Shown here: positions 5,431 to 51,692 of the stretch, one piece after another | Layout: each line of letters begins with the position of its first letter | Numbering within the stretch: position 1 is the stretch's first letter | DNA from: Protula sp. h YS-2021 | Taxonomy: Eukaryota > Annelida > Polychaeta > Sabellida > Serpulidae | DNA: 64,000 nucleotides | Reading direction: 5' to 3' | NCBI GenBank assembly: GCA_949752745.1 | Contig: OX457031.1 | Span: 27,234,882 to 27,298,881 of the forward strand | Position numbers and translations under genes: made by a program | The notes under the pieces: generated by a model | Databases searched by the model: none | Seen by the model: only the letters and a program-made list of their open reading frames with translations | Told to the model about the DNA's origin: nothing

Positions 5431-5436
5431 TTTATT
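5431..5436 (-). terminator. Candidate polyadenylation signal of the neuropeptide gene
   Basis: AATAAA on the minus strand lies about 145 bases beyond the in-frame TAA at 5584-5582. This fits a short 3' UTR if the peptide exon is the last one. Confidence 0.4.
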
Positions 5437-5581: not shown

Positions 5582-8099
5582 TTACCTGTCATAGATTCCC
5601 ATTTTGAGGCATGAAGTTTGCACAGCTCTACAGACTGCAGTGGCCTCTTCGTAGCTGATTTTATTATTGTAAGATTCGTAGCCTCTCTTGCCGAAGAGAA
5701 GTGACGACATCTGTGGATGCGATCGCTTTCCGAAAAACAGCCCTGGAATGATTATAACGACATGAATAAACTCTTAAGCCCTTAAGTTTTTTAACGGTAT
5801 TATACAAATTGTGGTTATTTTTTCAAGCGAAAATTGTCACAGTGATCCCTAGATATCCAGGATCAACTTAGAGGCCATCCACACCTGGTAAAATTATGAC
5901 GTCTATCTAATGTCTGTTTGAAGTCGCGACGTATATTGGCCAATTCAAAAGTTGAACGTCTTTGCTCGACGTTGTTTAGGCATCCGGGAATGAACCAAAA
6001 AAACATGTTATTCCTCAGCGGGAAACTGCAGTTCTGATTTGTCTGTCAAAAAATGTTAAGTCAAAACAATGATTTAAACTTAATCTGAGGAAAGCGCAAA
6101 GTTCTTTTATCGCCTATTTTTTGGGAAAATGCAAACGAAAATGACATAGTCTTATATACTAGATGGCCCGAGGGAGGAGGGGGTAGGGTGCTTGATGGAA
6201 AGGTATGTCAGGAATGTCGAGTTCCCCATCTTTACACAAAGGAAATTTATCGGCGCCCAGACGTATGTGCAAACGTCTTTCCCCCACATCTTTCCAACGT
6301 CCACATCAATTATAGCATCGTGGTAGAACCCTCCCCCCCCCCCCCCCCCCCACTCCCTCACATATCTCCTTGCTTACGTACTTTTTGATCTATGACAAAC
6401 AATACCACAAAAGGCACGGTGCTTGAGATACAGTGGACTGAAATACATATCATTAAAAGATGGTAGACAGTCTGAAAGTTCTGCATCAGTAATTTATGGT
6501 TGACATGTTTTGTTGATACATGGCTCTTTGCAGCTGCTGGACTGTTCAGTAAATAGAACAGCCCAAAAACATTCAACAGCCAGGTAACCAAATTGATATT
6601 GACAGTAACACGACCAGGGAGAGTTTGCTTGTTCATATATTCTATGTATTTATTGAATAATTGGTTAGTTTCTTAATTTACTTCAGGAGCTGGAATGAAA
6701 TTAGTTTTTATGTGAGATATCTCCGCTTTCACAAAATTATTCAAAAATATCAATTTCAACTTGATTAGAAATTTCAATGAGGAATATATGTAAGATTTCA
6801 ATGAGGTGTTCTATGGAGATTCACTAGGGAAAAGAAGTGCAAACCCCCCTCCCCCACTCTTCAGCGTCTCTAGTCCAGTTTGAAACTAGAACCTCATTTC
6901 GCTAGCGAAATGTTAAACACTTGAGCGAAACTAAAACGCAAAAATGCTTCCTTCAATGTGTTATTTCTTGAAAAATATATTGCAAACAACACAGCTTGAG
7001 TACATCTTATAAGCCGAGTAGCATTTGGGTTTTGTTGACTTAAGGTTTTATTGACTGATCAGGCATACACCGTGTTATCTATTTACGCAGTTAGAGTTCG
7101 CACAAAGCTGAGCAACTGTGTATACCGTGTTGTGCATTAAATGCTCCACATTTACTTGCAAATAGAAAGTGACATGCACACGTTCAGATCAAGCTCTTCA
7201 TAAGTCCCAAGTTTCATGGTCCTAGGGCCCATAGTGTCAGAGAAGAGGGCACAAAAAATCGGAAAACTGTCAAGAAGAAAAAAAGGACGAACGACTGCTC
7301 ACACAAATTCACATAACCCTTGCAAGCTAACAGCTTGTCAAGTGTTAATTATGACCTGACGACATCTGGTTGATTAATTGGAAACCGTTCAGCTCAGTAT
7401 CACTCTGCACACAAACTGCTCCCACAACAATAACGGTAATTTTATCAAAAGCCTACGTTTATTGTGAAAGTGAACCTTCACTCATCCCATTGGAGACTCA
7501 GAAACAACGTATTTACACATGACAAGTCTTTGACTTGGTCAAGGCTTATATGACTTTGTGCGGGCAGCCGTTGGTGCTTTTCTTCTTGGCACTAAAAATT
7601 CATTTTCTTGTCTCAGCTTCTTCTCTGACACTACAAGCCCTAGGACCACAAAACTTTGTACTTATGTAGAACTTGATCTGAGGGTGTGCATCCCGCCTTT
7701 TTCCGTCTACGATTTCGTTTCTATGCTTAAAACGCCATGTGAACACAGCTGATTTTAGAATAAATACAGCGCATTTAAAAGCAAAGTAACGGTTGAGCAA
7801 AACATCACAGCTTATGGGCGTTACGCGAGCTCTGCCGGCATAGAGAAAAAGTGCTAGTCCGTTCAATTAATAAAGTCGTTGAGCCAACATAACCAAGCAG
7901 ATGTACACAGTTTATAAACGGAATTTCAACTGTGATATTTGCTAATATATTTGTATTACAGACTATGTGGCTTATAAAAAACTTCATGTTGTTCAAGAAA
8001 TAATAAACTGTTCAAAGAGATATTTTAAACTTTTAATGTTTGTCAAGTGTTGAAGAATTTGCTTGCGAAATGCGGTTCTAGTTTTTTTTCGTTTTCTTA

Positions 8100-8149
<50 letters not shown>

Positions 8150-11100
8150 TCACGCGTCATGTACACCGCTTATTATTCTAAGCGGAAAATATAGCAAGAT
8201 TAATAAAAAATACGAACAAACCAACTAAAAAAGATGTAGTTCTAAAAAAAGAATAATTGTAAGACAAATAGTTAAATTCATAACACTGCTAAAAGTACTT
8301 TGACCAAGATAACATTCACTGCTAAATTTAAGACTAGACCTCGCAATACTGTTTGAATAAGAACGTCTATAAGGAACGCTTGAAAGATCCGAGACTGGCA
8401 CTGTTTCGGATCCGGTAGGGCAATGAGTTCCAAAGTGTTGGAGCCGAAAAGCGGAATGAGCGGTCACCGTATCTGTTCTTGCTCCTTGGAACGACTAGTT
8501 GGAGACTGTCATATCCTCGGAGACAACGCGGAGGTTATGGACGCATAGATATAAGGTCTGCCAAATATTGAGCAGCAGCACTGTCCAGGGATTTGAACAC
8601 GAGTGTAAGAATCTTGAATTTCGATCTTTCATATATAGGTAACCAGTGAAGCTCTTTCAGATTATCCGTTATACTAATGTCACGGTTCCGCCCAATTCCT
8701 TTAAACACGCGGGCCACGTCATTCATTATCAGTTGTAGACCATGTATTAGGTGCTTAGGTAGGCCATGATACAGACTGTTACAGTAATCAAGTCTCGATA
8801 TGACCAGAGCATGTACGAGCAGTTTGGCATTATTTTCGGAGAGAAATGATCTAATTTCTTAAATCCGGCCAATGTAGAAGTAACACAATCTACGGATATT
8901 GGACACGTGAAGCTGCATTTCCAAATGCGAATCCATTGTGGCTCCTAGGTTGCGGACATTCACTGAACACTTAGTCACACTATCACCCAGTTTAAGTATG
9001 CTCGTATTCGAGAGGATTTTGATGAGGATAGCGCTGGCGCTTTTGAATTTGAGACCCCAACCCACGTTTGAACAGGTTGCAGAAAAAAGGAACAGAATTG
9101 ATCAGCAAACTTCTTCGTGAAACTGCATTCAGGAAGAGGGTTGGATTTGGACCTATGTATGGTAGTGTTCATCGATCTGAACAGTGTTTTTGACTCATTA
9201 CGGTTCCTTGAAATGAGAACGGAGAGGCAATCTGATTTTGCATTTCGAAGTTTGTTACGCCATGCGCTAAAACTGTAAGGCATTAGAACTATCGTCTTTG
9301 CCAGTCTTATGTCATAACTTACTATTTGACAGCAGACTTGCTGTCTTTTCAAACACTTCTCCAGCCCAGGCTGCACAGTTTTTAAGGTCAGTGCTACACA
9401 AACCAATTAAAAAAATCTAGAATTTTAGAATCAAAGAAATTTTTTAAGACTGGAATAGCAAAAGTGCAACAGAGACCTTGTTTTGATAACTTAGTCTCTT
9501 CTGTTTTATGGTATAATTGTCTGGCAGATGGACGTGGCCTTTTGAGCCCCGCCCTCTTGTCTCCTTCTGATTATTTGAAGAAGCCAAACTTCAAGGTATT
9601 TTTGCGTGATCATCATTGATGTAAACAGTAAAAGGATCTAACCTTTAGACTCAAACTGAAGTAATCCTCACGGGGTCATTTGATATCTGTAAACACTCTA
9701 AGAGGTATTTCGTCTTGTGTACCGGATATTTTTAGAATTAAACGTCACTGAAATGGTTTTTCGTTTTAGTACACCCTTGGCAAACCAAAAATATAAGTGT
9801 ATAAATATTGCAAAAAAATTGTTTCGGGACATTATGGACAGTATTCGATCATAGATTGGATGCGAAATCTCCTAATCTGGAGATGGAAAATAAAAAAAAC
9901 ACAAAACAATGGTTATGACCTAAGAATAACAATGAAACCAACATTGAAAGATTTTACCAAGAACTTATATATGGAAAGAAAAAAAAGAGAGATTGGCATT
10001 TTTCACTATTTGTTACAAAACCTACTTGTATTTCCTGTGGATCCAATTAAAATAAATTTACATAGACGAAAAAATTCAACATAGAGTCTTTCATCTTGTA
10101 AATAAAATAAAAATAAAAGGTGTATTCTGAATTAACTCAGCATTGTCAAACTTTTGAGCCACTAACCTCTATTTTTACACATATATAAGGCCATCCCCTA
10201 ACTTCTTGCAAAATATAATGGTAAGAAGAATTATTGTTCTAAAGGAATTGCGATAGAGACGCCCCAATAGGAAGACCATGCAAACAGCACCTTAACGTAC
10301 TAGACTCTTCTTTTAATAGTTTCATTCCACTTATGGTCCATTGTGAACAATCTCAATATAAGACCTCCGTGGATATCTGAGCACAAAAGTTCAGTCCCAC
10401 TGACCAGTTTGAGGGGGGGGGGGTGTTTAGGAGAATTTCCTTCCTTGAAAGAGTTGGCTTTGCTTTATTTTGGGAAGGATAGGTATACCCGATACATAAC
10501 TGGTTACGCCCAAGGTCTGTGTGGAATATTGACTTTGAGAGAAAATGGGTGTCGTCTTTTGAACGCATTGCCCCTCGTAGCACTGGTCAATCCGTAGACA
10601 GTTTGAGATTGTTTACAGCTTAGCCCAGAGATTAACCATAACAGCTTCGTGTTTGTCGATACTTGTCGCTTAGCCCATTGACAAAGAATCTCCTAAGCCA
10701 CGTTAAAACTTCTGTATTAATGATAAAACGAGGACATAAAACTATAGAAAACAGGTCTTGTGACCAAGTTAAGAGAGTTAGAGACCATCGTCACATCTCA
10801 ACCTGTTTAAGAGTGTGAAACAATTTTTAAAATGTGAAGGGTTATATGCGCACTTAAAAATAATTTCGAAATGCAGAGCCAGTTTTGAAACAATAGTTCA
10901 TTTAATGTGAATGCAATATTATGTTTGCTTTTTCTGAAGCAAAACAAGCTGTTGACAAAAAAAATAAGATTGTTTACAAGGGCAGCATTGGACAGAAGAG
11001 AAATGAGTTGACATTTAATTGCCTTTGAGGCGATACATCAAGTTTGATATCTGCCTTGAAGAAAGGACAATTGCATGCTAGATAATTGTTACACCAGAAT

Positions 11101-14100
11101 ATGACGAGCAAAAATAGCATTATTCACACGGAAAAACAATGTAATATCACAATACACGGAAACAATTGCTTATTTTCCGACGTGCCATTTTTGTGTCTTT
11201 TCCGGAGTTTTTTCAGCTTTGACATTTTTTAGCATATGGGTTGATGATAATAGTCATGCTTAATTTAATTCAGCGTCTATTTTTAGAACGCTGCCTCATT
11301 GAAACAATGGTAAGTTTAACCGGACACAAGATTTTCTACCGAATTGTGTGCTTTCGTCGAAATATCCAGCTGTTCAACTATTTAACATAGAAAAAACCTG
11401 TAAAAACTACATAAAATCTGAACCATTTAATACACCCGACCGAGCCTCCATAAGATAAAAAACTAAAGCAATATTAACATTTTACCCATGGAACAAAACT
11501 AGTTTAAGTAACGGTTAACTGAACATATTTCTGATTGGTGCGCTTGCGCACTGCAGTACATAAAAGCGGCCTTTATGGTTTCTGCAAAGGTTGCTTTTCT
11601 TCAACTATTTGCTCTACTGAGGTCTTTCTTCTGCTTTTTATCACCTTAACAGCAACTCTCTGAGAGGAAAGTCAAGAACCATGAGGAACCCAGAAGGCGC
11701 TGGTACATGGCGGTATACAGCACACCCCTCTCGTGACCTCCGAAAAAACATTGAATGAAGTATCAATTAAATCTCTTAACGCCTCATCAAACTAGTCAAA
11801 TATTTTCTGGTCAACCAAACCACAATGGTAATTTCTGTTACTGGCAACATTTACAGGGCTTGCAGTTTCCACACAGGGGAAAAGAGATGCAGTTGAACAG
11901 AAGCTCAAAATTAGGTAACAGTTAAAAGGTTAATCTATTGTATGAATACGGTCTTCTTGTTTTGCAGTTTATTGTCTGGGCTGTTGGGTGAAACCCCATT
12001 AAATGAAAATGCTTTTTAGAGTTACAGTTTTGGTTTTGAGGTCAAGTGACCCGTTAAAAAATTTTAACTAGTTTCGATAGATTGTTAAATTGCTTCTCGC
12101 TTGCTTCTACACCCACAAATTAGTGGACTGGACAGAAAATAAGACGATCGAATAAAAATTCATAAAAAAAATAATTCAGGAAAAGAAAGAAAGAAAGAAG
12201 AAGAAGAAGAAGAAGAAGAAGAAGAAGAAGAAGAAGAAGAAGAAAAGAAAAGAACGTAGGAGGTTTTAAACAAGCTGTCAGGCTGTTCACATCTCCACTC
12301 CTGTAACAAGCTGGCATGCTGCTGAGCAAATGCATGCTGGTTTAATCAATGTGTTGTTTTACTATAATTTTTACAGTCACTTTATCTGGTGAAAATCAGA
12401 AGACATTTGGTCCCCCTTTTGCCAAGCAGAGATGGACCGAGGCCAGGTTTGAGGGATACTGTCTCCCATTTATTGTAAGTTTCTTTAAGTCCTTATTTCA
12501 TTTCTTAAAGTATTCCATCTTTGGCGTTCGCATATATTGATGGTAATGTACGCAGAAATTTTGAAATGAACAGAAAAACTTGAGACCTATCGTAAAAAAG
12601 ATTTTACAAAGAGCAGCGTTGATAAAGTTTAAAATTTATACAAATATAGTAACTTTGAATACTGATGTATATATACACGTAAAAAATTAGAAATGTGTTA
12701 TTTAAGACATCAAATTGAAATTTCTATGCAATCTTTACGACGAAATTTAGACAGCTATAGAAATTTAGAAGCATCAAACCACAGCCCTACTCATTCCTAC
12801 ATTTTGCCATTAAAAGGTTAAGTCCAAGTTCCCCCATGGTGCAGTAGGGCTCAGGATGTAAATAGGATGGGGGTGGGGGGAGGGATAACGATGAAAGGGT
12901 TGCCCGCCATACCCGGACCAGTCAATGCCATATCGGAGGCATCCGTAGATTATCTGACACAGAAATTAAGCTGCTGAATGAAAGCAGTACGCAAGTTTTA
13001 TGGGACGAGCATCGTTGTCACATTTTCCTTTCCAAAAACTAAGTGAAGAGGGCTTTTTTACGACAGTTACCCTTGCTCACAAGGATCCTCCAAAATAAAT
13101 TATTTTATTACATTTTCATGGAGCATTTTATATCGGTCATATTTTCATGTGAGGTACTTGATGTCGCCGATATTTCTGTCTTAAGACAGGAGCAAGATTT
13201 GGTTAGCATATGGTTAAATGATTTCTCATATTTCGGAAACTGTTTGAAAGCCAAAGCAAACGCAAGGGAATGAATGCATTAAACGCTTAATAGTTAAATG
13301 TATTTTACAAGAGTCAAAGTCAAGGATAGCTTTCAATTCAATTTTTAGCTTTCAAGTTGAAAAGCAGAGAAGAAAATAAATTTTATGGCAAACTTTCAAG
13401 ATGTGTCCATGAAACAATGTTTTAACTTTCTCCAAATAACAGGGAAAACAAAAACAAGAACGAAACAAAGAGTATTTAAGAGTGTCTTCCGATGCAATTA
13501 CTCGCAATTTGAACATATGGATACTCATTTGTTAGAGTTCCCTTAATGGACAAAAGTAGCCCAGTGGAATTTGCGGCTGACTAGACATTCTTTAAGTTAG
13601 TTAAGCGACTATGACAAACTGGAGATTCGCTTCTAAATAGCCCACTACATATTCAGTTTTCATTCACTTGTATTCATTATTTTAAAACGAAATATAAGGC
13701 TAACTTGAGTTTCTTTTCAATTAAATTTTTAGTCATCCTTCACCGTGTTATAACTGAACGTTAAAAACTAATGTAAAATTAAATCAAGGGTCGAAAACCT
13801 TCGAGAAAAAAAAACGAAAGTGGGCCGAAAATATAAAATTTAAAGTATAAAAAAAATTATCTGGAATGCAGAAAAATACTAACTTCTCCGAGGATAAATT
13901 TATCTTAAAATGTGACGTTGGTGTCTTCGGCGCTCGTTTCTTCATACAGGAACACTTAAAACGTCTCAGTTTATAGCAGCTTATAAGTTGATAATATAAG
14001 TGTTGAGTCATATAAAGATTTTATAAATACATTAAACCTTATTCTGCGAGAGAAAAGAAAAGAAGCGAGAATTTTGAGCCGGGTCACCGAAAGTTTCAAA

Positions 14101-14565
14101 AATAAGAAAAAGTTTTGGGCTTGGTCGGGTCTATTTTTAGAGAACAAAAAAATACTTTTATATAATCATTTTGAACAGAAATTTTCAAGCTAAGTGCGAT
14201 TATATAAAAAGACGTAATTTTACGCACAGTTTTGTACAATTTTTTTCTCCTGATACAGCGGATCCCCGGGACCCCCCTCCTCCCCGCCTCCCCCCCCCCC
14301 CCCGACCTCCGCAAATGACCACTTTTCAATAGTCCAGGTACCTTACATTATCGGTAATCCCATAAATAGGACCGCTCAGGAAATCCGAGCACAGTACAGT
14401 CCCGGCTGGTGGCCGTATATCCACGGTTCGGTAGCATTTTCACTCACCTGTGGTGTCGGGAAGCTGTTCCTCCAATGGAGCTGTGTACACTTGCACAGAA
14501 AATAGCACCAAAAATAAGGTTGAATACAAACACACTGCTTTTGTATTCATTGTGCAATATCTCAT
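5582..14565 (-). CDS. SIFamide/FFamide-type amidated neuropeptide precursor
   Basis: Two coding exons join in phase on the minus strand: 14565-14448 (signal peptide; in-frame Met codons at 14565 and 14550) and 5742-5582. The first ends CCACAG|GTGAGT in phase 1 and the second starts after ATTCCAG, giving a protein of 87 or 92 residues. Numbered from the inner Met, residues 1-24 are a hydrophobic signal sequence. LFF-GKR (36-41) and SHPQMSSLLF-GKR (42-54) are Gly-Lys-Arg amidation/cleavage cassettes. A spacer leads to a pair of cysteines, VCRAVQTSC (71-79), spaced C-X6-C. Arthropod SIFamide precursors have the same order: signal peptide, GSIF-GKR, spacer, C-X6-C. Molluscan counterparts are called FFamides. 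The last codon reads AGG-TAA; this AG|GTAAGA is also a good donor, so a further 3' exon is possible, as is a missed middle exon in the 8.7-kb intron. Family call is from architecture only. Confidence 0.72.
5743..8097. other. Intron of the neuropeptide gene, left part
   Basis: AT-rich intronic sequence between the peptide exon and the LINE relic. It includes a poly-C tract near 6331-6351. No splice-flanked exon was recognised, though a short extra peptide exon could be missed by eye. Confidence 0.45.
8098..8150. repeat. (TTA)n microsatellite, possible LINE tail
   Basis: A run of ATT/TTA trinucleotides lies just beyond the 3' side of a minus-strand LINE relic. It could be that element's simple-repeat tail. 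Confidence 0.7.
8226..9406 (-). mobile_element. Degenerate non-LTR retrotransposon (CR1/L2/Jockey-like LINE), RT core deleted
   Basis: On the minus strand, the segment upstream of about 9060 resembles the linker before the RT domain (ending near FADQFCSFFLQPVQTW). It passes directly into sequence typical of the region after the RT catalytic core: NLGATMDSHLEMQLHVSNIR, LKELHWLPIYERSKFKIL, LQLVVPRSKNRYG and RSFRFSAPTLWNSLP. These motifs belong to the C-terminal part of CR1/L2-type ORF2 proteins in invertebrates. The palm with its YADD-type motif is missing, and there are several stops and frame breaks. It is a dead relic inside the long intron of the neuropeptide gene. Clade assignment is approximate. 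Confidence 0.75.
9407..14447. other. Intron of the neuropeptide gene, right part, with an AAG microsatellite
   Basis: Mostly AT-rich DNA. It contains an (AAG)n microsatellite at about 12185-12253, a poly-G tract at 10414-10423, a poly-C tract at 14289-14303, and a possible plus-strand promoter/exon pair (about 11537 and 12373-12472). Nothing else was recognised. Confidence 0.45.
12373..12475 (+). other. Candidate plus-strand exon of unknown transcript
   Basis: The segment is bounded by a TTTTTACAG acceptor and a TTTATT|GTAAGT donor. It is open in one frame throughout (core GPPFAKQRWTEARFEGYCLP) and richer in GC than its surroundings. I do not recognise the peptide. It could belong to a non-coding RNA or an unidentified gene antisense to the neuropeptide intron. 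No partner exon was established. Confidence 0.22.
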
Positions 14566-14573
14566 CTTCGTGC
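14448..14573 (-). other. Signal-peptide exon of the neuropeptide gene
   Basis: The upstream acceptor has a strong pyrimidine tract ending CTCTTCTCTCTTCAG, so at least one 5' UTR exon must lie to the right. The exon encodes MRYCT-MNTKAV, then a hydrophobic run and VYTAPLEEQLPDTT. The donor CAG|GTGAGT is close to ideal. Confidence 0.7.
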
Positions 14574-24258: not shown

Positions 24259-25767
<1,509 letters not shown>

Positions 25768-29371: not shown

Positions 29372-30590
29372 GTTAATGTCACCAAATGTCACGCTCGATT
29401 GCAGTTTGACTAGGATGGCCAGTGTCAGGACTCAGTGAACATTTCATGATTACAGAAGTTGAATTCCGAGGTCGATTGGGTCTGAGTGCCCGTATAGGAA
29501 GATCAGTATTCTAAGTAGCTAGAATCAGTTTTTTCCTCCCACATACTGAGTATTTCCACTTCAAACCTCGTTATCGTTCAACATATGTGCTCAAACTAAC
29601 TCATTTAACGATTTCAGCTGCTTCAACAGGCGGTTTTATACACTAACAGGCATGTAACCTAAATGTCCTCGTGTACAGGCTTTGTAGTCTACAGGCCATA
29701 GAACTGACAAAGAAAAGCTTGTGTTGATATTCCTGCCCACTCGTGCGTTTACATGTCATGCCCAAAATAAACTTTATTTACATGTATATATATTTTGAAT
29801 CAGGGCATTTGAACGACTGAACTTCCGCTCTTGTGTCATATTCGTCTCAGTAAAAATGTAGGATTTTAAAGGCGAAGTGTTGTTTTATTGGATGTCAATT
29901 GCACGTAAGTCTCTCGTTTACATATATTCACTTAATTTCTCAGTTTAATAAAGTGACGTAATTGTGTTTATGTCAGTGAAACGACCGTGCAGTATGTAAC
30001 AACCATATGTTTCAAAATTGAGCGAAAACACGAGGCGATCTGATGTTTAAATTGATTATGTTTGAATCAAATTGATTCAAAAACTAAGTTTATTTATCTA
30101 TTATGAGTATAAGATGACTTTTTTCTTGGGTGAACTTATGAAAATGCACCTATTCCCAAGGAGGAGCCCTGATATCAAATTGCCATAAATGCATCGCCGT
30201 AACATATGGAGTAAATTTATTCACAATCAAGTACTATTTCACCAAATTTATGGGTATAAGTAAATTTTTACCGGAAATCAGTTTCACCTTTATCAGATGC
30301 CATCACTGGATTTCCAGCCACGAGGCAAAGATGGAAAGAGAGAAAGAGGATACAGCGAGACAAAAGAAAGAGAGAACGACAGAGAAAGAGAAAGAGAGAG
30401 CGAGTGAGAGAGAAGACAGAGACAGACCGACAAACAAACAGACAGACAAGCAGACAGAGAGAGAGAGAGAGACAGACAGACAGAGCTAGGGAGACTGAAA
30501 CCGGGAGTTCGACACAGGCAAAGCAACAGAGACAGAGATACAGAGATGTAGATAAAGAGAGCGAGAAAGAAACAAAGAGAGAGAGAGAGA

Positions 30591-30918
<328 letters not shown>

Positions 30919-31029: not shown

Positions 31030-43222
<12,193 letters not shown>

Positions 43223-48499: not shown

Positions 48500-51400
48500 A
48501 TGTCTTTTCTCAAGATACATAATTTTGTGGATACTGACAACGAAAATGTTAAAACAGATAAACGAGTACAATCAAAAAGTGAAAATCCGCGCGATAGATG
48601 CTGCTGGAAAGGCCGCTACTTCTTTGATGCTTTGAAAGCTGTAATAACGCGAATGATGTTCGCTCTACATGCTATGTTAGCTATTTGGCAAGTGACTATA
48701 GTAACCGACCGGGTTTATTGGTGGCTGGCGGTGTCTTTTGCCGGTATTTTAATTGAGACATTTGTTGTTTTATTCAAAAGGCGTGGCCAGGAGTGGAAAT
48801 GGTATTACTTCCTTTTATGTGTAAAAATAATTTGCAATTGAAAGTCACTTTTTCAAGAAAACGTCTAAAAACTTATCCTTTCCAAGCAAGTCTATGCTAA
48901 TTATTTTTTATGCTTTAATACTTTTTTATTTTGTTATTTAAATTTTCTTGTTATTTTTTCATCTCCATGTTTTTCGCTTTAAGGCTCTTTCAAGCGAAAT
49001 GTAGGACTCCATAAAGTTCGTTAATGGCATTACATAAAAAATGGGCTGTGTCTTTTTCTGAATAAAAAACGTGTGTTTACATTAAAATGAATAAGCATTG
49101 CAGGATAGCATTCTAGACACAAAAGCATTAAATAAAGTATTGAAAGTATATATATACACAAGTTCAATCTTCTTTTAATAAAACACTAACCTTAATTGAT
49201 AATAGATTATTAACAAAGTAGGTTTTAATAACGATACTGCACGTTAGAAAAATCTTTTTGCGAGCAGATTGCTTTCACGGGAATTGCTTTCACGTTTCTT
49301 ACTCTGCTAGGCCAAGTACCCACCCGATATTAAATGTGTCTTATGAACTCCACGTTTAAAGAAAAAACAATTGCAATACTTTTTGCAAATTTATTCTCCG
49401 TATTTGTTTCAAATTGAGTGATATCTTTTTCCTCTCGACAGGGACATCTATCTAAAAATAAATATAATAAAAATAACACGAGTAATTAATTTTGTCAATA
49501 CTAAATGTAACTATTTATTTCACTTTTCACTGTTTCACTGTGAATAAATTAAAACAGTCTGGAACTTTTAGCAATCAAATTAAAATCCTGGTGCTTTCTA
49601 GTAATGGCTGAATGAAGTAAAATTCTTCTTTCTTACACTAATTAATCTTTAAAATTTTCACATTACCTCTATATATGTTGTCTTGAAAGAGTGTGCATCA
49701 AATCACTTTGGACTCATATGTATATATTTCGACATGCTCTGATTATATTTTCTTTCACATTTCTGTGAAAGATATGTTGTAAAATCCGGATCTGAAAAGT
49801 GCCTACATGCATTTTTGTATGACATGAAAGGATGTTAATGTAATTAATAACAATGTAAGTTGACAAACATAAAGGAGCAAGCATCGGAAATTGTTTGATT
49901 AAAAGAGGAATTTCACGGGGTGGCCTAAGCTGACAATACCTGTTTTTCCATTGATTTGACAAATATTTGTTTTGCATGTATTTTTATCTATTTTTGGATG
50001 TTGAGTCTCCAAGTATCAGATGGGCTATGACTGTAAATTTATTTACTTTCTAGGTTTCAATTCAGTATTTTTCTTTATCTGGCGGCAGCGGTACCACCTA
50101 TTTGGATATTGGAGCTTACTAAATTAGGAACATGGAGCACCGCCTATAATTCCAGTCTTTTGTCGTCAGGAGTTGAAAACGATGGGGTAACATATATCAT
50201 TGCAACATGATTTTGGCAAATGCTATGATCTGATTGATGTTCTCCAGTTAAAATTTTGTAATGTGATGTCAAATGTCGATAGATAATGCAGCTATTTGCA
50301 GTCAATGCACCAGTGAAGTCGTGTAACGAAGCATATACTGCGGTATTTCGAGTCAAGACAAAAATACTTCACCTTTACTCTGTAAACATATTTGCTGTTT
50401 GGAACAGAGCATTGGAGTTGTAACTATAAACCTGACGTCACAAGAGTGGACAATAGTACTTGAACAAGGTCTTGTTTTGCTCATTATAATTGGGCGATGG
50501 CTTATGCCTAAAGGTAAAGTAAATCTTTGTGAGTCAAATGGGTGACTAAAAGTATATATTACAATGCTAGAGTATAGCATTTTGATCCAATTGTAATAAA
50601 AGCATATAAAGGATAACTCAATAGTTTAATATATCAATACAATTAAAGTAAAATAAAGCACAAAACTATCTGTTACAGTCCAAATAAAAATTGTCATAAA
50701 ATGAATATTTAGCCATAAACCTTGTTAAGTAATATATTGAAAACTGAATCAGAAACTTGTCATAAACTCACATCTATAATCAGATGTGCACAAAAACAAA
50801 GTAGTCATTTTTCATATGTATTCTTGTTGTGTTTTGTTTGTAGGAGAACTGACGAGAGAACAGCTGTCAGCATTGTTACTTACACATTTGGGAACGGCTT
50901 CGGATATTGTCGATTTCATGTCAATCCTTTCCGAACCAAATATCATAGGCACAGGTGCATTTCTTTACGCAGTCCTTGCAATGTGGACTTGGAGCCTTTG
51001 CCAGGTATGATTTTGTCATCATTAAACACAGCCAAATTATTCATAGTAAAATTAATTTGACAGAAGAACACGCAGTTTTTCTCATTTAGCTCTTATTTTT
51101 AGTCGTTGCAACCAATTGCTTTTGAATTATGATAATTCATTGATATTTCAATATATTCACAAAAACTTTACGTTTATGACAGCATGATGTAATATGCGTT
51201 TTGTAACAGTTCCCCTTTGTGGTGACGTCAACCTCAGACAACACAGATGACGAGGATGACGACGCAGTTTATGATTATGACAAAAGTGTAACCGTCAAGT
51301 CAAACACAAAAGTTACAGCTGCTTCAACTATCATCAAACGAAAACTCAATTTTCTTGAAGCATTTTTAGAAACCGAAATGTGGGGAATTTTAGTATCTGT

Positions 51401-51692
51401 ATTAATGCAAGATGGACCTTTTGCTATTATGCGCATAATATCAATATCAGCTTATAGAATCGTCACTTACACCAATTATTTTTTCACTGGTAAAAATGTA
51501 CTTGTCTTATTTTTGCAACTGTATAGACTGCTGTCCATTTATTATGAAAGCAAAGAAAAAAAGAAGAAGCAAAAGGAACAGAAACGCGTCATTAAATTAG
51601 CAAAGCTGTATGAGGGCGCATTTTTAGCTCATCAAAAACGCACTCAAGCAAGCCAAAAGACTTCAGAAATAAATTTAACTGAAGTCGTGTAA
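48500..51692 (+). CDS. TMEM26: TMEM26-like multipass membrane protein
   Basis: A complete five-exon model of 394 residues with exact phase agreement: 48500-48801, 50054-50186, 50408-50513, 50844-51004, 51210-51692. Human TMEM26 is about 368 residues. Conserved landmarks include a first helix with FALHAMLAIWQVT followed by YWWL, EWKWFQFSIFLYL across the first junction, VLLIIIGRWLMPKG, the TREQLSALLL...GTASDI segment, YAVLAMWTWSLCQFPF, and WGILVSVLMQDGPFAIMR followed by NVLVLFLQLYRL. An acidic loop (DNTDDEDDDAVYDYD) begins exon 5, and the C-terminus is Lys-rich and cytosolic-looking. The molecular function of TMEM26 is poorly known. In vertebrates it is mainly used as a surface marker. The start is the first Met upstream of the first helix. 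Confidence 0.92.

What the first reader, a model, noticed from the sequence alone, without database searches (positions are those of the whole stretch)
5582..14573. SIFamide/FFamide-like neuropeptide precursor split over a large intron
Two short exons missed by simple ORF calling join in phase to give signal peptide, xGLFF-GKR, SHPQMSSLLF-GKR, spacer, C-X6-C. The Cys-pair spacing and position match arthropod SIFamide precursors, while the -LFF/-LLF amide endings differ from SIF. The predicted products are two amidated peptides, the first ending TTGLFF-amide and the second SHPQMSSLLF-amide.
Basis: partly seen in the sequence, partly recalled or inferred. Interest (0 to 1): 0.85.

Follow-up and report, generated by a model that had tools for sequence, protein, structure and literature searches.

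The report
Annelid FFamide/SIFamide neuropeptide gene
This stretch of what is most likely worm DNA holds an ordinary, intact gene for two small nerve-signalling peptides of a family already known from worms, snails and insects; it is real and was correctly recognised, but it is not new in kind.

Summary
Two minus-strand exons (14573-14448 and 5742-5582) splice in phase over an 8,705-base intron into a 92-residue precursor (87 from the second Met): signal peptide...LPDTTGLFF-GKR, SHPQMSSLLF-GKR, spacer, C-x6-C, stop. Its best relative among 5.8 billion proteins has E = 3.4e-27. A profile built only from relatives finds these two pieces first among the window's 2,821 (E 1e-18 and 7e-6); 0 of 100 shuffled windows reach either score. 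They are the only two matches at E <= 0.001 in the 863-Mb genome.

It is a FFamide/SIFamide-type precursor. The two named annelid relatives share its peptide order; the five named gastropod and bivalve relatives have the reverse. The genome carries erythrocruorin-linker domains, so the host is most likely an annelid. LFF/LLF endings are the norm for lophotrochozoans, not a departure. The Cys-pair link to arthropod SIFamide holds. Minor oddities: peptide 2 lacks two near-invariant asparagines, and the intron position is shared by only some relatives. No transcript, peptide or receptor was tested. New member of a known kind; low interest.

The parts
14448..14573 (-). Exon A: 8 bases of 5' UTR, start ATG (Met1 at 14565-14563, Met6 at 14550-14548), signal peptide, and the N-terminal part of peptide 1 up to TT|G
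   Evidence: profile hit 23.4 bits; genome hit E 7.1e-19; BLASTP of exon A alone to P0065 64% over 39 aa
14482..14565 (-). Probable signal peptide, residues 1-28; hydrophobic core residues 10-24; cleavage after T28 inferred
   Evidence: best 15-residue Kyte-Doolittle mean 2.27; the cleavage site is inference from the aligned relatives; no signal-peptide predictor was available
5743..14447 (-). Phase-1 intron, 8,705 bases, GT..AG
   Evidence: same position implied by relatives P0062 and P0065 (donor side) and P0034, P0038-P0042, P0045, P0046 (acceptor side)
5582..5742 (-). Exon B coding part: end of peptide 1 (GLFF-GKR), peptide 2 (SHPQMSSLLF-GKR), spacer, C-x6-C, stop TAA 5584-5582
   Evidence: profile hit 64.6 bits; genome hit E 3.7e-29
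5723..5742 (-). Peptide 1 C-terminus GLFF, amide-donor Gly, KR cleavage site
   Evidence: L35 to R46 (LPDTTGLFFGKR) invariant in the 12-row alignment
5684..5722 (-). Peptide 2 SHPQMSSLLF, amide-donor Gly, KR cleavage site
   Evidence: aligned with HPNMNNLLF-GRR of relatives
5609..5632 (-). Cys77-x6-Cys84 pair of the C-terminal precursor peptide
   Evidence: C-x6-C behind the last peptide in 49 of 68 family rows, the other 19 including truncated rows
5431..5436 (-). AATAAA, candidate polyadenylation signal, about 150 bases after the stop
   Evidence: motif only

Best explanation
A single-copy, intact gene, most likely annelid, for a FFamide/SIFamide-type neuropeptide precursor. The two exons are spliced and the product enters the secretory pathway (inferred). 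The signal peptide is removed, prohormone convertase cuts at the two KR sites, and the exposed C-terminal glycines are turned into amides. This releases [A]PLEEQLPDTTGLFF-amide and SHPQMSSLLF-amide plus a Cys-bridged C-terminal peptide (processing inferred from motifs and from mass spectrometry of a gastropod relative). The amidated peptides most likely signal through a SIFamide/NPFF-type GPCR on muscle, heart, gut or reproductive tissue (inferred from family knowledge). Shown here: the exons, phase, homology, family membership, and no second copy at E <= 0.001. Not shown: transcript, mature peptides, receptor, function.
For: Homologues at E 3e-27 to 3e-7 for 10 of 11 hits; 68 hits at E <= 10 with a profile. 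Organism names among them: SIFamide/FFamide [Urechis unicinctus], FFamide 2 [Deroceras reticulatum], and proteins of Lamellibrachia, Lottia, Mactra, Lymnaea, Bradybaena. A profile of relatives alone picks the two exons, with a shuffle control; genome-wide only these two at E <= 0.001. Tree: the window sits in the half that holds both named annelids, split from the half with all five named molluscs at 100/97 (caveats in the full report). In a gastropod, Theba, both LLFamide and LFFamide were identified by mass spectrometry (PMC4408573 passages). Platynereis has a SIFamide precursor (PMC3890597 passages). SIFamide peptides are ligands of NPFF/GnIH-type receptors in protostomes (PMC4062910 passages). 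FFamide raised larval heart rate by 20.3% in Charonia (PMC8270824 abstract).
Against: No transcript could be checked. Peptide 2 departs from the family at two near-invariant positions (Q at -7, S at -5). The exon B acceptor is unremarkable. The end of the coding region is ambiguous because a donor-like motif overlaps the stop. Pfam gave no match over its cut-off, only adipokinetic hormone at E 0.17. No receptor was sought, and the deeper search for a paralogue did not complete.
Confidence: 0.94

Rival explanations
1. The gene is a decaying copy or pseudogene: the lost asparagines in peptide 2 reflect relaxed selection, and the active gene lies elsewhere.
For: Q and S at positions where 42 and 43 of 44 LFF-first rows have N; long window branch in the tree, 0.82 against a median end branch of 0.25.
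Against: No other place in the 863-Mb genome at E <= 0.001 (a second search with the Urechis protein did not complete). Frame, both KR sites, both amide glycines, C-x6-C and the splice donor are intact. LPDTTGLFFGKR is unchanged.
Confidence: 0.03
2. An unrelated precursor with convergent LFF/LLF-amide endings (for example an RFamide- or allatostatin-like gene), not of the SIFamide family.
For: Short amidated motifs converge easily; PMC5627052 suggests convergence for an echinoderm precursor with an IFamide ending (passages).
Against: Similarity runs through the LPDTT segment, both peptides and the Cys pair. The prawn SIFamide precursor pieces score 15.1 bits on the profile without the window, reached by 0 of 1000 shuffles of either kind.
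Confidence: 0.02
3. Chance pairing of two ORF fragments over 8.7 kb, not a gene.
For: The exons are short (126 and 161 bases with the stop) and no long ORF covers them.
Against: as above; relatives encode the joined sequence contiguously.
Confidence: 0.01

Closest known systems
Annelid FFamide/SIFamide precursors (Urechis unicinctus P0021, Lamellibrachia P0028; Platynereis and Capitella SIFamide precursors in the literature)
   Same: Signal peptide, LP(D/E)T(T/S)GLFF-type peptide first, (H/N)PN(M/L)NNLLF-type peptide second, C-x6-C at the end, similar length. 48% identity to Urechis over 75 residues. The Platynereis and Capitella sequences were not compared.
   Different: Peptide 2 is SHPQMSSLLF (SSHPNMNNLLF in Urechis); GKR after it where Urechis has GRR; one residue fewer between the peptides.
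Molluscan FFamide (Lymnaea GLTPNMNSLFF-amide, Theba, Crassostrea, Patinopecten)
   Same: Two amidated peptides ending LFF and LLF near the signal peptide.
   Different: Order reversed, LLF first and LFF second, in all five named mollusc rows (12 LLF-first rows in all); the three named pulmonate rows lack the C-x6-C.
Arthropod SIFamide precursor
   Same: Peptide right after the signal peptide, F-amide, dibasic site, then a C-x6-C in the following peptide (ICQVAVEAC in the prawn, PMC4449106 passages).
   Different: One SIFamide peptide, ending SIF-amide; N at -5 kept, which the window lacks.

Membership tests
Lophotrochozoan FFamide/SIFamide precursor | Signal peptide followed by two short amidated peptides ending LFF and LLF | tested here: met
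   hydrophobic core by Kyte-Doolittle only, no signal-peptide predictor available
Lophotrochozoan FFamide/SIFamide precursor | Gly + dibasic site behind each peptide | tested here: met
   GKR after both peptides
Lophotrochozoan FFamide/SIFamide precursor | C-x6-C in the C-terminal part | tested here: met
   C77-x6-C84; found behind the last peptide in 49 of 68 family rows
Lophotrochozoan FFamide/SIFamide precursor | Significant homology to named members | tested here: met
   Urechis SIFamide/FFamide at 2.0e-27 in the profile search, whose profile includes the window; BLASTP of the window product to Urechis 48% over 75 residues; tree
Lophotrochozoan FFamide/SIFamide precursor | PNxN core of peptide 2 (common, not defining: N at -5 in 54 of 56 and at -7 in 53 of 56 parsable rows) | tested here: not met
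   window has PQMS; Lottia P0048 has PDMS and P0030 has S at -5, so members may lack it
Arthropod-type SIFamide | C-terminal SIF-amide | tested here: not met
   endings are LFF and LLF; it is filed as the lophotrochozoan member, not as SIFamide in the strict sense
SIFamide/NPFF receptor ligand | Activates the SIFamide/NPFF-type GPCR | not testable with these tools
   needs a receptor assay
Lophotrochozoan FFamide/SIFamide precursor | Expressed and processed in neurons | not testable with these tools
   no RNA-seq or peptidomics of this species at hand

The most novel reading that the evidence does not exclude
In this lineage peptide 2, the one that aligns with arthropod SIFamide, has lost the asparagine at -5, which 54 of 56 parsable relatives and prawn SIFamide keep, together with that at -7. 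The ligand-receptor pair may have co-evolved here, with peptide 1 (LPDTTGLFF unchanged) now carrying the ancestral signal and peptide 2 free to act elsewhere.
Probability: 0.1. Interest if true: 0.4.

Novelty: new member of a known kind. Interest (0 to 1): 0.2.

Why it matters
It gives a gene model for an annelid-type FFamide with an intron position, and a peptide pair with exact masses that can be looked for. The wider comparison shows a clean split among named rows: the two annelids carry LFF then LLF, the five gastropods and bivalves LLF then LFF. That makes the peptide order a usable evolutionary character and bears on which of the two peptides corresponds to arthropod SIFamide (the second one, by alignment with the prawn precursor). 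It does not open a new kind of system.

Tried and rejected
Cephalopod origin: my first guess, from the TA and tetranucleotide repeats, was an octopus. Dropped because an ACE-like gene in the same window has no close named relative among the 120 listed of 7,962 hits (best Ridgeia piscesae, annelid, 52%), the LFF-first order matches the two named annelids, and erythrocruorin-linker domains are in the genome (7 matches over the cut-off, two of them with stops inside; 0 of 14 control genomes ring; that the linker is annelid-specific is recalled). The mollusc haemocyanin domain PF14830 gave 0 matches, but it rang in no control either, so that says little. The ACE tree alone does not settle it: the window falls in an open group of 14 rows with Ridgeia and one of the two Capitella rows (93/92), and by path length Lingula is slightly nearer (1.67 against 1.73).

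Pfam: only Adipokin_hormo at E 0.17 (12.8 bits, cut-off 22.9). Rejected. PDB by sequence: no match. Rfam and tRNA: none.

A second FFamide copy in the window: the next best profile piece has 9.0 bits, E 0.23 (34493-34708), inside the range that shuffles reach. Rejected. A further genome search for paralogues with the Urechis protein did not complete.

Papers: 14 were opened, all by 'find' (passages only; for PMC8270824 also a passage of its abstract). Two gave nothing on this peptide: PMC7737342 (Urechis; 0 occurrences of SIFamide or FFamide in the main text) and PMC4307165 (reference list only). Literature searches; the letters TTGLFF and MSSLLF occur in none of the 13 papers listed of 14 found. 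The library holds open-licence papers only.

Full report
What was checked. The finding claims two minus-strand exons that join into a neuropeptide precursor. I read both and spliced them. Exon A runs 14573-14448 and exon B 5742-5582, stop included. The intron is 8,705 bases. Its donor, CAG|GTGAGT, is the only 9/9 consensus donor among 3,575 minus-strand GT sites of the window; exon A is preceded by an acceptor with 19/20 pyrimidines, which suggests a separate 5' UTR exon upstream; exon B's acceptor is unremarkable.

Is it more than chance? A search of 5.8 billion proteins with the product gave 11 hits, 10 of them at E 3e-27 to 3e-7 and one at 0.02. The relatives carry LPDTTGLFFGKR as one string, so what the splice recreates across 8.7 kb is the invariant part of the family alignment. 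Because the relatives were found with the spliced product, I built a profile from ten of the eleven (P0011 left out as truncated) without the window. Against all 2,821 stop-to-stop pieces of the window it hits exon B (64.6 bits, E 1e-18) and exon A (23.4 bits, E 7e-6); the next piece is at E 0.23. Over 100 dinucleotide shuffles the best score was 12.2 bits. In the whole genome, 863 Mb in 218 contigs, the product matches these two places and nothing else at E <= 0.001.

What it is. A profile search, with the window in the profile, gave 68 proteins at E <= 10. Seven carry an organism name: SIFamide/FFamide of Urechis unicinctus (2e-27), Lamellibrachia satsuma (2e-24), Lottia gigantea (2e-6), Mactra antiquata (2e-5), Lymnaea stagnalis (3e-4), Bradybaena similaris (2e-3) and FFamide 2 of Deroceras reticulatum (0.03). 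The last few of the 68 are weak and P0066 is probably unrelated. The Lottia protein is number 176362, which PMC4062910 lists as Lottia SIFamide precursor 1 (passages). P0057 (Lymnaea) contains GLTPNMNSLFF-GKR, the peptide whose isolation from Lymnaea, as involved in vas deferens motility, is cited in PMC4670828 (reference list only). So the family is the FFamide/SIFamide family of lophotrochozoans. In Theba pisana both an LLFamide and an LFFamide were seen by mass spectrometry (PMC4408573 passages); PMC6425005 reports SIF/FFamide in all eight mollusc classes (passages); PMC3890597 reports a SIFamide precursor in Platynereis (passages).

Relation to arthropod SIFamide. The prawn SIFamide GYRKPPFNGSIF-amide and its precursor-related peptide with ICQVAVEAC are printed in PMC4449106 (passages). 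Joined by GKR they score 15.1 bits on a profile of 45 family rows without the window; 0 of 1000 full shuffles (best 3.7) and 0 of 1000 shuffles of the tail alone (best 10.8) reach this. The alignment pairs SIFamide with the second peptide of the window, not the first.

Which animal. Both named LFF-first rows are annelids (Urechis, Lamellibrachia; taxonomy); all five named LLF-first rows are gastropods or a bivalve. A tree of 44 of the 68 rows, two second cassettes and the window splits the two types at 100/97 and puts the window with the LFF-first rows. Caveats from that call: a short alignment (104 columns), 18 of 44 inner branches open, bootstrap not settled, and a warning that long branches, Lottia above all, may join falsely. 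An ACE-like peptidase in the same window is nearest to Ridgeia (52%) and then Lingula (51%) among the 120 hits listed and falls in an open group with Ridgeia and one Capitella row. The genome carries seven matches over the cut-off to the erythrocruorin-linker domain PF16915, six of them within 30 kb, two of the seven with stops inside; none of 14 control genomes rings. That this domain marks annelids is recalled knowledge. I conclude: most likely an annelid, species unknown.

Intron position. Several relatives seem to come from unspliced DNA and stop matching exactly at TT|GLFF. P0062 and P0065 run from the signal peptide through LPDTTG and then into unrelated residues; P0034, P0038-P0042, P0045 and P0046 start matching at GLFF, six of these eight being near-copies of one another. 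P0034 is identical to the complete precursor P0019 for 50 residues from GLFF on and diverges just upstream. So this intron most likely exists in other lineages. P0065 is the nearest exon A (64% over 39 residues) and shares the upstream MRY. In contrast P0011, P0018, P0030, P0033, P0036 and P0037, on contigs of 0.13 to 11.9 Mb, read straight across this site, as does P0044 on a short contig; the intron is absent there if those proteins were called without splicing (inference). P0028, an annotated NCBI protein, could have been spliced and is not counted.

What is unusual. In peptide 2, position -7 from the amide is Q and -5 is S. Of the 44 LFF-first rows that could be parsed (of 68), 42 have N at -7 and 43 have N at -5; of the 12 parsable LLF-first rows 11 have N at each, Lottia being the exception at both. 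The remaining 12 rows did not fit either pattern and were dropped. The rows hold only 26 and 7 distinct peptide strings, so the counts overstate independence. Prawn SIFamide also keeps N at -5. The change could alter receptor fit; nothing here tests that.

How it most likely works. Shown: exons, frame, motifs, homology, no second copy at E <= 0.001. Inferred from the family: secretion, cleavage at KR, amidation at the two glycines, a disulfide in the C-terminal peptide, action through a SIFamide/NPFF-type receptor. [quoted passage not shown] Likely effects are on muscle, heart or reproductive organs: FFamide raised larval heart rate by 20.3% in Charonia (PMC8270824 abstract and passages). For this animal no effect is known.

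Open points. A donor-like CAG|GTAAGA overlaps the stop; with AATAAA about 150 bases on, exon B may be terminal, or it may splice on. The 5' UTR exon and promoter were not sought. No transcript, peptide or receptor evidence was available. A search for distant paralogues in the genome did not complete.

Verdict. Observation confirmed, interpretation supported, kind already known. Interest 0.2.

Noticed in passing
36995-43219 (+): Exons of an angiotensin-converting-enzyme-like peptidase (Pfam M2, best E 4e-25) with the HHEMGH zinc motif at 39391-39576; nearest named relative among the hits listed Ridgeia piscesae, 52%.
   Followed up: partly
51207-51692 (+): Exon of a TMEM26-like protein, matching the C-terminal part of the Pfam model (E 2e-18).
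   Followed up: no
24469-25146 (+): DDE_1 transposase fragment, Pfam E 5e-39; pogo/Tigger-like by my recollection of that family.
   Followed up: no
33343-34575: Tandem array of a 31-base unit with a 469-base higher-order period; it gives long open frames by repetition.
   Followed up: no
30564-30918: AGAA tetranucleotide array, 89 copies.
   Followed up: no
7174-7246 and 7619-7691: 73-base inverted repeat arms, 85% complementary, 372 bases apart inside the intron; possibly a small transposon.
   Followed up: no
8978-9406 (-): 143-residue open frame inside the intron that reads like a retrotransposon-linked piece (my impression; no significant Pfam match, best E 0.042).
   Followed up: no
P0001, P0012 (related proteins without organism names): Precursors with a doubled cassette LFF-LLF-LFF-LLF in place of one LFF-LLF pair.
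   Followed up: no
P0047-P0063 versus P0001-P0046 (related proteins): The order of the two peptides is reversed between the five named molluscs (LLF then LFF) and the two named annelids (LFF then LLF); the three named pulmonate rows lack the C-x6-C.
   Followed up: partly
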